Source: Bdellovibrio sp. 22V
GTDB lineage: Bacteria > Bdellovibrionota > Bdellovibrionia > Bdellovibrionales > Bdellovibrionaceae
Direction of reading: 5' to 3'
NCBI RefSeq assembly: GCF_030169785.1
Contig: NZ_CP125854.1
Location: forward strand, 62,001 to 126,000
Length of the DNA: 64,000 nucleotides
A program made the position numbers and the translations under genes. Under the pieces are notes generated by a model. The model worked only from the letters and a program-made list of their open reading frames with translations, was not told where the DNA came from and made no database searches. Below, piece by piece: positions 59,688 to 64,000 of the stretch (positions are counted from its first letter, which is position 1; each line of letters begins with the position of its first letter).

Positions 59688-60083
59688 ATGGATCAGGAAA
59701 AGACTCCTTATGAACTTCTTGGTGGAGAAGCCGTTTTAAGAAAACTCACCCAACGTTTTTATGAAGTGATGGACACTTTGCCTGAAGTGAAACCGCTGCG
59801 TGATATGCATCCAGGTAACTTGCAGGGCTCGGAAGAAAAGCTTTTTATGTTTTTATCAGGATGGTTAGGCGGTCCGAGTTTGTTTCAAGAGAAATACGGC
59901 CATCCGCGTTTACGTGCGCGCCATATGCCTTTTGAGATCGGAAAGTCGGAAAGAGATCAATGGATGTTGTGTATGGTTCACGCTTTCGACGATCTGCAAG
60001 TTCAAGAACCTCTGCGTTCTGAGCTTTTGCATTCGTTGTTGAGGCTTGCTGATCACATGCGCAATCAGCAAGAGCCTACTTAG
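59688..60083 (+). CDS. Truncated hemoglobin, group II
   Basis: 131 residues, 2-over-2 globin. Proximal His79 in RARHMPFEIG, Tyr25 at B10, and Trp92 at G8 (QWMLCM) support group II (trHbO). These proteins bind O2 or detoxify NO and peroxides in the cytoplasm. Co-transcribed with the Lys-rich gene. The stop lies 13 bases before the end of the convergent HTTM gene. Confidence 0.92.
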   Translation: MDQEKTPYELLGGEAVLRKLTQRFYEVMDTLPEVKPLRDMHPGNLQGSEEKLFMFLSGWLGGPSLFQEKYGHPRLRARHMPFEIGKSERDQWMLCMVHAFDDLQVQEPLRSELLHSLLRLADHMRNQQEPT

Positions 60084-60096
60084 ATTCAAGACTTAG

Positions 60097-61035
60097 CTAA
60101 ACGCTCAAAGCTTTGCGTCGGCTTAGTCGCAGCGGAAGACGCCAGCGGAAACCCTCCACGACTTTTTTAACGTCCTCAGCAGGTACCATTGAAATCATCG
60201 TAGCAATCATCACCCACTCGAACAGGGGAATGTTCATAGTGATTTCGATTCCAAGATGCAGACCGACACCGGCGAGCAATACCCAGTAACGAAGCTCGCG
60301 AACCCAGATCAATGTTCCTAAAGACAGCTCCACCGCTAAGGTCGACCACGTCAAAAATTTGATCACGGCCAGGTGATTCAATAAACCGAGCGGAACGCGA
60401 ACGAACTCATCCAGACGGGTGGCGATGTAAACAGCTGTGCCGTCCACCCACGCAGCTCCTTTAAGTTTAAACATCACGGTCGCAATATAAATAACACAGA
60501 TTTGGAGCTGCATAAGGCGCAGAGCCCACGGCGCTTTATCTTCAGGAATTTCCGGAGCCAGGCCGCGCAGACGAAGAAGCCAGCGGTCCAGCGACAGCCA
60601 ATCTCCCGAGCGGGAAAGAAGCAGCAAGAAAAGAAAATTTCTGATAACCACGTCAGAGCTATTAAGAACAAAAATATTTCTGTTATGGAACGAGAGCAAA
60701 GTAAAGAGCGTGATGGCAATCGACGTTCTGGTGAAGAAGCCAAAGAGCATTCCGACAACGCCGACAAGATTCAGAAGCGCGAGGAAAACCGGAACGCTTT
60801 CTTTATTGGGAAGAAGCTCGAACAGATTAAAACGATAAGAATGTCCGTACTTAATAGCGGTCTTAAGTGACATGACTCCGTCGACGCCCCAGAAAAATTC
60901 CAGATTGTCCCAGATCGAAATCCAGTTAAAAAGTAAAATAATCCCTAAAGCCACGCGCAGAAGAGCCACGGTATGAACCGGCGCCGGTTTAAAAAAGAAA
61001 TCATGAAGGGAATTAGTGATCGTTTTTAGCTTCAT
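60097..61035 (-). CDS. HTTM-domain membrane protein, copy B
   Basis: 312 residues, about nine membrane helices. HTTM proteins are bacterial relatives of the vitamin K-dependent gamma-carboxylase membrane domain. Family marks: HTVALLRVALGIILLFNW at the start, the loop FKLKGAAWVDGTAVYIATRLDEF and RELRYWVLLAGVGLHLGIEITMNIP. Same length and strongly similar to copy A (61591-62529), with long identical runs near residues 195-280. Its start overlaps the partner gene by 23 bases. Reaction and substrate unknown. Confidence 0.9.
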   Translation of the reverse strand: MKLKTITNSLHDFFFKPAPVHTVALLRVALGIILLFNWISIWDNLEFFWGVDGVMSLKTAIKYGHSYRFNLFELLPNKESVPVFLALLNLVGVVGMLFGFFTRTSIAITLFTLLSFHNRNIFVLNSSDVVIRNFLFLLLLSRSGDWLSLDRWLLRLRGLAPEIPEDKAPWALRLMQLQICVIYIATVMFKLKGAAWVDGTAVYIATRLDEFVRVPLGLLNHLAVIKFLTWSTLAVELSLGTLIWVRELRYWVLLAGVGLHLGIEITMNIPLFEWVMIATMISMVPAEDVKKVVEGFRWRLPLRLSRRKALSV

Positions 61036-61588
61036 GTCTTAACTCCTGAGTAGGTTTGTATTGATAGACGGATTCTTTATTGAACACGGTACTAAGTTTG
61101 CCATGCTCAATAAACTGCTCCGTCGGAGGTTTGACGGTGTTTACGTGCCGATAGAATTGCACCGATGCGACAGTACGACCGCGACCGTGCGCCTCAATTT
61201 TATTAATCTCGCGTTCCAGAAAGCGTGAGAGATCCAACCAAAGCTCCGGTCTTTGCATCGGAATCAGATTTTCTTGCGAGAATTTTCTGACACGTTCCCC
61301 TGAGGTGAAACGTTCCCAAGAATCCAGACGGGAGGACCTTGGGAACGTCCATTTCTCAGTGGAACTGTCGTTAAATGTGATTTCTGCATCGATATAAGAG
61401 TTTGTCGGCGAAGGATTCGGAGCAAACATACTCCAAGGTTGGTCCAGTCCTAAAAAGACCTGATAGAGTTCCAACTTTTTTAGAATCCTCTGTCCAAACA
61501 AACTGCGATCGGGAAGACCGGCAATAATAACCATAGACAGATGGACGGCGATGAAAATGGAAATGATTGTTTTCCAGACGAGTCCCAT
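61013..61588 (-). CDS. FAPNP-motif membrane-anchored partner protein, copy B
   Basis: 191 residues. One N-terminal membrane helix (TIISIFIAVHLSMVIIAGLPDRSLFG), then a short periplasmic-type domain with QPWSMFAPNPSPTNSYIDAEITFNDSSTEKW. The FAPNP motif with an upstream QxWSM is seen in DUF5819-like proteins that pair with HTTM proteins, from memory. Similar to copy A across the entire length. Overlaps the HTTM gene by 23 bases and follows the other HTTM gene by two bases. Confidence 0.8.
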   Translation of the reverse strand: MGLVWKTIISIFIAVHLSMVIIAGLPDRSLFGQRILKKLELYQVFLGLDQPWSMFAPNPSPTNSYIDAEITFNDSSTEKWTFPRSSRLDSWERFTSGERVRKFSQENLIPMQRPELWLDLSRFLEREINKIEAHGRGRTVASVQFYRHVNTVKPPTEQFIEHGKLSTVFNKESVYQYKPTQELRHEAKNDH

Positions 61589-61590
61589 AA

Positions 61591-62529
61591 TTATGCTTCC
61601 TTACTCTTTAAGGGTTTGCGTAGCGTGAGTTCGCCTGATTTTATCTTTTCGCAGAGATTTGCCAGATCCCGCGAGTCAATCATCGCAATCATCATCACGA
61701 TCATGGCCCATTCGAACATCGGAATACTCATAGTGTATTCGATTCCCAGATGCAGGCCGACGCCGGCTAGCAGAACCCAGTAGCGCAGTTCTTTGAACCA
61801 CACCAATGTGCCCATCGCGAACTCCACAATGAGAGTCGACCATGTGAGAAATTTGATAAAGAGCATGCTATTCAGAAGTGGAAATGGAAAACGGTAAAAC
61901 TCGTCAAGCCTTGTGGCGATATAAACAGCCGTTCCATCGACCCACGGCTCTCCTTTAATTTTGAAGAGAACTGTTGCGACATAGATCGTGCAAAATTGCA
62001 GCTGAATCAGGCGTAGGGCCCATGGGCTTCTTTCCAGAGGCACGAGCGGAGCCCGGCCTTGTTTGAGCTTGCGCCAGCGGTCGACGGACCAAAGATCTCC
62101 GCTGGGAGTAAAGAAAAGGAAGAACAAGAATATACGGAGAACAGAATCGGCGCTGTTCAGAATAAATCCGTTGCGATGATGGAAAGACACCAAGGTGATG
62201 AAGGTAATCCCTATCGCCATTCGCGTGAAGGTTCCGGTGATAATCCCCAGTACGGCAATCAGGTTTACGAAAGCCAGTGTCACGGTCGTCTTATCGGTGA
62301 GCGGAATGTAATCAAAAAGAGAAAAACGCAGCTGGTTTCCGTATTGTTGCGCGGTTTGCAGGGACACCATTCCCTCCGGCCCATATAGAACATCCAGATC
62401 GCTATAGATCATAAACCAATTTAAGAGCATAAGCAGACCGATCCCGATCCTAAGAGCTGCCACGCTATGCACGGGTTGAGGTTTGAAAATAAAATCGTGA
62501 ATATTTTTAATAGCGGTTGTTAGCTTCAT
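61591..62529 (-). CDS. HTTM-domain membrane protein, copy A
   Basis: 312 residues. Same helices and family marks as copy B: HSVAALRIGIGLLMLLNW, FKIKGEPWVDGTAVYIATRLDEF and KELRYWVLLAGVGLHLGIEYTMSIP. Identical length to copy B. Differences cluster in the middle (for example FTPSGDLWSVDRW against SRSGDWLSLDRW). Its start overlaps the partner by 23 bases, as in the other module, which points to duplication of the whole two-gene unit. Confidence 0.9.
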   Translation of the reverse strand: MKLTTAIKNIHDFIFKPQPVHSVAALRIGIGLLMLLNWFMIYSDLDVLYGPEGMVSLQTAQQYGNQLRFSLFDYIPLTDKTTVTLAFVNLIAVLGIITGTFTRMAIGITFITLVSFHHRNGFILNSADSVLRIFLFFLFFTPSGDLWSVDRWRKLKQGRAPLVPLERSPWALRLIQLQFCTIYVATVLFKIKGEPWVDGTAVYIATRLDEFYRFPFPLLNSMLFIKFLTWSTLIVEFAMGTLVWFKELRYWVLLAGVGLHLGIEYTMSIPMFEWAMIVMMIAMIDSRDLANLCEKIKSGELTLRKPLKSKEA

Positions 62530-63124
62530 GTCTCACCTGTTGTGCTGTTGGAGTAAAGAAAAATACCGGCTCTGCTTTATAAGAAGAGCTGAGTCGGCCG
62601 TGCGGAATAAAATTTGAATCCGTCGGCGGAGCAATTTGGCTGTGGAAGCGATTGAAGACGATATTCTTAACGACGCGCTTTTTCTCTTTTGCTTCCTTCA
62701 AAGCTGTTTGTTTGAGAATGTATTTCGAAAGATCGAACCATACGAGTTCGTTTTGATTCGGCAGAAGTGTTTCCTGTCCCATTAAACGATAGCGGTCGGC
62801 CACAAGAAGCTTGCGTAAACCCTCTGTGTTTCTTTGCCGCGGCATCTTCCATATATCGTGAGAGCCGTCGTCAAAGTAGATCACGGCTTCAATGTGTGCG
62901 TTCGTGTTCATCGGATTTGGAGCAAACATACTCCAAGGTTGGTAGAGCATTCCAAAAGCCTGGTAACGCGCTATCAATTTTATATATTTGGTGCCGAGTG
63001 CACTGCGATCCGGAAGTCCATCGGCGACCATAATTCCGACGTTCGCGCTAAAGAAAAGAAAGATCACAATCTTTAGCATCGCCTCTTTGAATGGTTTCAT
63101 TCTTTTTATCAACATGTTTTTCAT
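62507..63124 (-). CDS. FAPNP-motif membrane-anchored partner protein, copy A
   Basis: 205 residues. N-terminal helix (MLKIVIFLFFSANVGIMVADGLPDRSALG) and periplasmic-type domain with QPWSMFAPNPMNTNAHIEAVIYFDDGSHDIW. First gene of the four-gene leftward set. ATG 63124 has AAGGAC seven bases upstream; the frame is open 17 codons further, without a ribosome site. Function unknown; possibly a substrate-presenting or electron-transfer partner of the HTTM protein. Confidence 0.78.
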   Translation of the reverse strand: MKNMLIKRMKPFKEAMLKIVIFLFFSANVGIMVADGLPDRSALGTKYIKLIARYQAFGMLYQPWSMFAPNPMNTNAHIEAVIYFDDGSHDIWKMPRQRNTEGLRKLLVADRYRLMGQETLLPNQNELVWFDLSKYILKQTALKEAKEKKRVVKNIVFNRFHSQIAPPTDSNFIPHGRLSSSYKAEPVFFFTPTAQQVRHEANNRY

Positions 63125-63446
63125 ACCCGTCCTTATGATAAACTTTGAGAAAACAAAAAATAGTTTCGCAAACATCTATCACGTCTGTTTCGACAAAGTC
63201 TGGTTATTGATTTGAAACATTGATGAAGTTTTCGCGCGGAGAAAAATCGCCAGCGCAACACTACTAAACAGAAAAGATATGAAAACTAAACAAAAAGGAT
63301 ATGTTTCGTTTTTAAGTAGAGCCGCGTTTGTTTAGTGCTATTAAATCAACGCAAGTAACAAAATTTTATCGTGCTAAAAAAATCCAGTCGTACAAAAGTT
63401 CTTTTCAATTTTTTAGCAACCGTAAAAAACAACAAAAGGAGAATGT
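63125..63446. other. 322-base A+T-rich intergenic region between divergent units
   Basis: Lies between the HTTM module and the Asn-Gly repeat gene. No gene seen. It must hold promoters in both directions, but I cannot name reliable boxes. The AAGGAG at 63436-63441 is the ribosome site of the repeat gene. Confidence 0.6.

Positions 63447-64000
<554 letters not shown>

What the first reader, a model, noticed from the sequence alone, without database searches (positions are those of the whole stretch)
60097..63124. Tandem duplication of an HTTM + FAPNP two-gene module
Four leftward genes form two copies of [membrane-anchored FAPNP protein + HTTM protein]. Within each copy the genes overlap by exactly 23 bases (61013-61035 and 62507-62529), the HTTM proteins are both 312 residues, and a two-base gap joins the copies. 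Equal overlap and length argue for duplication of the complete unit. HTTM proteins are relatives of vitamin K-dependent gamma-carboxylase, so a periplasmic protein-modifying or lipid-linked redox system is conceivable. The partner is uncharacterised. Two diverged copies suggest two substrates or a heterodimer.
Basis: partly seen in the sequence, partly recalled or inferred. Interest (0 to 1): 0.85.

Follow-up and report, generated by a model that had tools for sequence, protein, structure and literature searches.

The report
Duplicated split carboxylase-like module, collagen-like neighbour
A predatory Bdellovibrio carries two old copies of a two-gene membrane-enzyme module related to the vitamin K-dependent carboxylase, and across its relatives this module sits beside a gene for a long, secreted collagen-like repeat protein that is probably its substrate.

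Summary
In detail: four leftward genes, two [FAPNP + HTTM] pairs, 23-base overlaps, two 312-aa HTTM proteins, a 2-base join. The copies are homologous (56% and 38% identity). The duplication is old: A and B clades span most two-copy Bdellovibrio species. Relatives carry the pairs convergent (6 genomes), unlinked (4) or single (7); only the window genome has them in tandem, at a site the module moved to. The 23-base overlap is genus-wide.
The HTTM half is carboxylase-like. A relative with both halves fused matches solved GGCX structures (Foldseek E 1e-6; VIA Z 18), and the catalytic Lys218 position is Lys in every HTTM aligned. GGCX His160 is not kept, and FAPNP shows no detectable similarity to the carboxylase luminal domain, so Glu carboxylation is unlikely.
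It accompanies the pair in 18 of 18 genus genomes; in two further genera it sits beside fused HTTM-FAPNP proteins. Best reading: a split, quinol-using enzyme or maturation factor (SdpAB-like) for that surface protein. The reaction is unproven.

The parts
60097..61035 (-). HTTM-A: integral membrane protein, 312 aa; Lys190 (codon 60466-60468) at the GGCX Lys218 position
   Evidence: Pfam PF05090 E 1.3e-13; A clade in tree; Lys alignment
61013..61588 (-). FAPNP-A: 191 aa, N-terminal membrane helix plus periplasmic domain; QPWSMFAPNP at 61412-61441
   Evidence: 38% identical to FAPNP-B; homologous to the C-terminal domain of fused HTTM proteins
61013..61035 (-). 23-base overlap of FAPNP-A stop and HTTM-A start
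   Evidence: sequence; conserved in the genus
61589..61590 (-). 2-base join between the two pairs
   Evidence: sequence
61591..62529 (-). HTTM-B: 312 aa, second copy; Lys190 codon 61960-61962
   Evidence: Pfam PF05090 E 2.8e-17; B clade 100/100
62507..63124 (-). FAPNP-B: 205 aa from ATG 63124 (222 aa if from 63175); QPWSMFAPNP at 62912-62941
62507..62529 (-). 23-base overlap of FAPNP-B stop and HTTM-B start
   Evidence: sequence
63125..63446 (.). divergent intergenic region between FAPNP-B and the repeat-protein gene, presumed to hold both promoters (no consensus promoter was found there)
   Evidence: the divergent layout recurs in relatives
63447..64000 (+). N-terminal part of the secreted collagen-like (Asn-Asn-Gly)n protein; it continues 544 bases past the window end to a stop (365 aa in all). 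Candidate substrate
   Evidence: Pfam Collagen E 6e-31; genus-wide neighbour; its C-terminal domain lies elsewhere in this genome

Best explanation
Each FAPNP/HTTM pair is one two-subunit inner-membrane enzyme: a split relative of vitamin K-dependent gamma-carboxylase. HTTM supplies the membrane core, with the Lys that in GGCX deprotonates the quinol. FAPNP supplies a last membrane helix, the W-S-M-F linker and a periplasmic domain that handles the substrate. By analogy with SdpA/SdpB and their adjacent secreted substrate SdpC, the pair modifies or matures the secreted collagen-like repeat protein encoded next door (63447 onward here; about 1000 aa in relatives) on its way to the cell surface. 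The likely cofactor is menaquinol. The modification is probably not Glu carboxylation. The A and B copies come from an old duplication and may serve different parts or forms of the substrate. Shown: the genes, the pairing, the fused forms, the GGCX-like membrane fold in a fused relative, the conserved Lys, and the genus-wide association with the repeat protein. Inferred: complex formation, substrate identity, cofactor use and chemistry.
For: FAPNP matches the C-terminal domain of single-chain HTTM proteins in other Bdellovibrionales, hhalign E 9e-8. A model of such a fused relative hits GGCX in its top 16 PDB matches, probability 1.00, E from 1.5e-6, with Z 17-18 over residues 1-325 against a best unrelated Z of 7.5. 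Lys190 is invariant in all HTTM proteins aligned and lines up with the Lys of true carboxylases; a conserved His (H260) also lines up. In GGCX, K218A abolishes catalysis and M401 of the linker touches the quinone (PMC12589487); W-S-M-F resembles the W-x-M-M of bacterial carboxylases. The genome has menA and a VKOR. The repeat-protein gene lies beside a pair in 18/18 genus genomes that have one (two as N-terminal pieces, one inferred across a contig break). It moved together with copy B in G006 and G009, and its N-terminal part with both pairs in the window genome. It lies beside fused HTTM-FAPNP proteins in two other genera and, by matching contig ends, in two more Bdellovibrio genomes. The two genus genomes with the repeat-protein gene but no pair have a short or missing repeat region, 179 and 49 aa against 326-559 aa in intact neighbours of a pair.
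Against: No reaction has been seen and no cofactor shown. Profile comparison of FAPNP with the carboxylase luminal domain is not significant (E 0.12). The model of FAPNP alone is poor (pLDDT 58) and matches nothing; the fused model is also weak (pLDDT 55), and its FAPNP part was not matched. GGCX His160 is Ser here. Homologues of the repeat protein's C-terminal domain exist without an adjacent HTTM. Some unlinked pairs are not beside a repeat protein (L070, L072, L075, L082). In the window genome the repeat protein is split in two, so its substrate role there is uncertain. The genus co-occurrence is not phylogenetically independent.
Confidence: 0.45

Rival explanations
1. The pair is a non-catalytic maturation, folding or export factor for the neighbouring fibre, as the family name export_SdpB and the distant lipase maturation factor LMF1 suggest; no covalent modification occurs.
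For: SdpB family match below cut-off; LMF1 below cut-off on a fused relative; long secreted repeat proteins plausibly need assembly help; GGCX His160 is lost.
Against: The Lys at the GGCX catalytic position is invariant in every HTTM compared, which a pure chaperone would not need.
Confidence: 0.25
2. The pair is a true gamma-glutamyl carboxylase that makes Gla in a periplasmic protein.
For: GGCX-like membrane fold in a fused relative, conserved Lys, menA and VKOR present; some neighbours have Glu-rich triplet repeats (L085, L086).
Against: Asn159-His160 of GGCX reads Asn-Ser; no PF22777 luminal domain in the genome; the repeat protein here has 3 Glu, all in the N-terminal 62 residues; most neighbours have Asn-Gly repeats.
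Confidence: 0.07
3. The pair acts on something else, for instance a lipid or a general periplasmic target, and the link to the repeat protein is shared inheritance of a gene neighbourhood.
For: A third pair in this genome sits after ScpB with no repeat protein, and similar pairs are seen across the order; some A copies are far from the repeat gene.
Against: The repeat gene keeps company with pairs after relocations, in different orientations, and with both split and fused forms.
Confidence: 0.23

Closest known systems
SdpA/SdpB/SdpC (and YitP/YitO/YitM) of Bacillus subtilis
   Same: Three-part layout: an HTTM membrane protein, a small partner, and a secreted protein encoded beside them (sdpABC and yitPOM described in PMC6818787). 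HTTM-A and -B match the SdpB model weakly.
   Different: Far below the SdpB cut-off; the partner does not match the SdpA model; the candidate substrate is a long collagen-like repeat protein, not a small peptide toxin; the pair is duplicated.
Vitamin K-dependent gamma-carboxylase (GGCX/VKGC)
   Same: Membrane fold of a fused relative, catalytic Lys position, a W-x-M motif after the membrane core.
   Different: Split into two genes; His160 lost; no detectable VKGC luminal domain; Gla chemistry not supported.
DUF5819 (PF19136)
   Same: The FAPNP motif region matches in 19 of 22 partner proteins below threshold.
   Different: Only about 29 residues match, under the gathering score.
Bacterial collagen-like surface proteins (Scl, Lcl)
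   Same: Secreted Gly-X-Y repeats in the neighbour.
   Different: Mostly Asn-Asn-Gly repeats, followed in relatives by an uncharacterised C-terminal domain of about 590 aa with no Pfam or PDB match.

Membership tests
HTTM domain (PF05090) | Pfam score above the gathering cut-off | tested here: met
   51.5 and 63.6 bits against 27.7
Vitamin K-dependent carboxylase | catalytic Lys218 | tested here: met
   Lys190 in A and B aligns with the Lys of bacterial carboxylases
Vitamin K-dependent carboxylase | His160 of the Glu pocket | tested here: not met
   Ser in genus HTTMs, His in carboxylases
Vitamin K-dependent carboxylase | luminal domain PF22777 | tested here: not met
   no match in the window genome, 11 of 241 phylum genomes match; FAPNP-VKGC hhalign E 0.12
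Vitamin K-dependent carboxylase | overall membrane fold | tested here: inconclusive
   a fused relative matches GGCX; the window HTTM proteins were not folded on their own
Vitamin K-dependent carboxylase | makes Gla using vitamin K hydroquinone | not testable with these tools
   needs biochemistry
SdpB family (TIGR04033) | curated cut-off 178.4 bits | tested here: not met
   44.8 and 33.9 bits
SdpA family (TIGR04034) | match to the SdpA model | tested here: not met
   no match in this genome at E <= 10; control genome B. subtilis rings
SdpABC-type system | adjacent secreted substrate gene | tested here: inconclusive
   adjacent secreted repeat-protein gene in 18/18 genus genomes, but its role as substrate is not shown
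DUF5819 (PF19136) | gathering score 27.1 bits | tested here: not met
   19.5 and 20.3 bits
Tandem duplication | homologous units head to tail | tested here: met
   in the window; in relatives the units are convergent, unlinked or single

The most novel reading that the evidence does not exclude
A split, menaquinol-dependent relative of the vitamin K carboxylase makes a so far undescribed covalent change in the Asn/Gly-rich or collagen-like repeats of a surface protein of predatory bacteria, with two enzyme copies of different specificity.
Probability: 0.25. Interest if true: 0.85.

Novelty: new variant of a known kind. Interest (0 to 1): 0.52.

Why it matters
What bacterial HTTM proteins do is largely open. 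Here the association gives a concrete, testable substrate in a tractable predator (B. bacteriovorus), together with fused and split forms of the enzyme. If confirmed it would extend quinol-driven modification beyond Glu carboxylation, and would name a processing system for a long surface protein in bacteria that invade other bacteria.

Tried and rejected
Recent tandem duplication: rejected by the tree and by relatives' gene order. FAPNP as the VKGC luminal domain: profile comparison not significant, although its predicted strand-strand-helix-helix-helix-strand-strand order looks similar by eye. FAPNP as SdpA: no match. Fold search with FAPNP alone: nothing. Repeat-protein C-terminal domain: no Pfam, no PDB match. 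NCBIfam MiiA motif on five FAPNP rows: an 11-residue match, treated as chance. Literature: no paper found on Bdellovibrio HTTM or on this repeat protein in the held library.

Full report
1. What is there. Four minus-strand genes at 60097-63124 form two copies of a two-gene unit. HTTM-A and HTTM-B are 56% identical over 297 residues, FAPNP-A and FAPNP-B 38% over 188. Overlaps are 23 bases in both copies and the join is 2 bases. Both HTTM proteins pass the Pfam cut-off; the partners only graze DUF5819.

2. Age and arrangement. The genome is a 3.6 Mb Bdellovibrio (relatives named). Of 24 genus genomes, 18 have at least one strong FAPNP/HTTM pair. Two copies: convergent in 6 (G004, G007, G010, G011, G012, G024), unlinked in 4 (G006, G009, G013, G026), tandem only in the window genome. 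Seven have a single copy. A maximum-likelihood tree of the HTTM proteins gives a B clade (support 100/100) and an A clade (86/87) that each run through many species, so the duplication is old but within the genus. The 23-base overlap is seen in the A copies and in some B copies, with 26 bases in several B copies; it is inherited. The ancestral site in the window genome (G000:C1 near 1.093 Mb, L162) keeps its usual flanks but has a sensor-kinase gene where the pairs and the repeat gene sit in relatives. The whole module has therefore moved, and the tandem order is secondary.

3. The missed neighbour. Divergent from FAPNP-B, at 63447 (+), begins a secreted protein of Asn-Asn-Gly repeats (365 aa, Pfam Collagen E 6e-31). 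In relatives the same gene codes for a protein of about 940-1175 aa: signal peptide, 326-559 aa of repeats and stalk (Asn-Asn-Gly, or Gly-Asp-Lys/Gly-Glu-Arg triplets, or other Gly-rich units, then a Ser/Thr-rich stretch), and a conserved C-terminal domain of about 590 aa. It lies beside a pair in all 18 genus genomes that have one. Two of the 18 are N-terminal pieces (window genome and G011) and one (G013) is inferred from contig ends. In G006 and G009 copy B and this gene moved together. The genomes G021 and G025 have the gene but no pair, and their repeat regions are short (179 and 49 aa). A Fisher test on strong genus matches gives p 0.0014, but the genomes are not independent.

4. Fused forms. 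In two other genera (G032, G034) the repeat gene is convergent with a single HTTM protein that continues into a membrane helix and a W[NT]MFAP[FY]P domain. In G015 and G013 similar fused proteins are followed by an N-terminal repeat piece that runs off the contig, and the matching C-terminal piece starts at another contig's end in the right orientation. Profile comparison links FAPNP to the fused C-terminal domain (E 9e-8). This is Rosetta-stone evidence that FAPNP and HTTM work as one unit, and an independent second link to the repeat protein.

5. What the enzyme core is. The model of the fused L144 protein is weak overall (pLDDT 55), but its top 16 PDB matches are all GGCX, with Z 17-18 for the best fifteen over residues 1-325 and unrelated chains at 7.5 or less. 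Profile comparison of genus HTTM with bacterial carboxylases gives E 3e-7. The Lys that in GGCX deprotonates vitamin K hydroquinone (K218; PMC12589487) is present in all 48 HTTM sequences printed. The GGCX Asn159-His160 pair reads Asn-Ser in the genus. The genome has menA and VKOR homologues, so quinol and a possible recycling partner exist. VKOR also serves disulfide formation (general knowledge), so this is only permissive.

6. Mechanism. Most likely the pair is a split, carboxylase-like membrane enzyme, or a maturation factor derived from one, that acts on the neighbouring secreted repeat protein, in the manner of SdpA/SdpB beside SdpC. Glu carboxylation is disfavoured by the lost His, the missing luminal domain and the near absence of Glu from the repeat protein here. 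The chemistry is not established. Two copies may split the work or serve variants; no evidence decides this, and nothing supports or excludes a heterodimer.

7. Limits. FAPNP alone gave no fold match and no significant similarity to the carboxylase luminal domain, so 'FAPNP = luminal domain' remains a hypothesis based on position and the W-x-M motif. In the window genome the repeat gene appears cut inside the repeats: its C-terminal part, with leftover repeats, is at 1.462 Mb joined to what looks by eye like a truncated hydrolase gene. This is a real rearrangement or a repeat misassembly.

8. Verdict. Real and interesting; ordinary in kind (HTTM module) but with a new and testable substrate association. 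The tandem arrangement itself is a side issue.

Noticed in passing
window 63447-64000 (+), continuing to G000:C1 about 126544; and G000:C1 about 1461885-1463939 (L123 6885-8939): The collagen-like repeat gene is in two pieces 1.3 Mb apart; the break is inside the Asn-Asn-Gly repeats. G011 (B. bacteriovorus kdesi) shows a similar split (L078, L124).
   Followed up: partly
L090 8841-10318 (G000:C1 about 2.294 Mb): Third pair in the same genome: a WNFFSPDP partner plus HTTM, 4-base overlap, directly after ScpB. Partner-plus-HTTM pairs recur across the order.
   Followed up: partly
L143 11715-13475: Fused HTTM protein with a DCC1-like thiol-disulfide domain (just under the Pfam cut-off) inserted between HTTM and the FAPNP domain.
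   Followed up: no
L088 10410-11359 (G005): The single HTTM copy of this genome is interrupted by a TAG stop, yet the repeat protein beside it is intact.
   Followed up: no
G000:C1:1083001-1103000 (L162): The ancestral site of the module has lost pairs and repeat gene and holds a hybrid histidine kinase gene between the old flanks.
   Followed up: yes
L093-L122: The 590-aa C-terminal domain of the repeat protein is an uncharacterised Bdellovibrionales family with paralogues on Pro-rich or Ser/Gly-rich stalks.
   Followed up: partly
window 59688-60083: A truncated-haemoglobin gene (Bac_globin) ends 13 bases from the HTTM-A stop, convergent.
   Followed up: no
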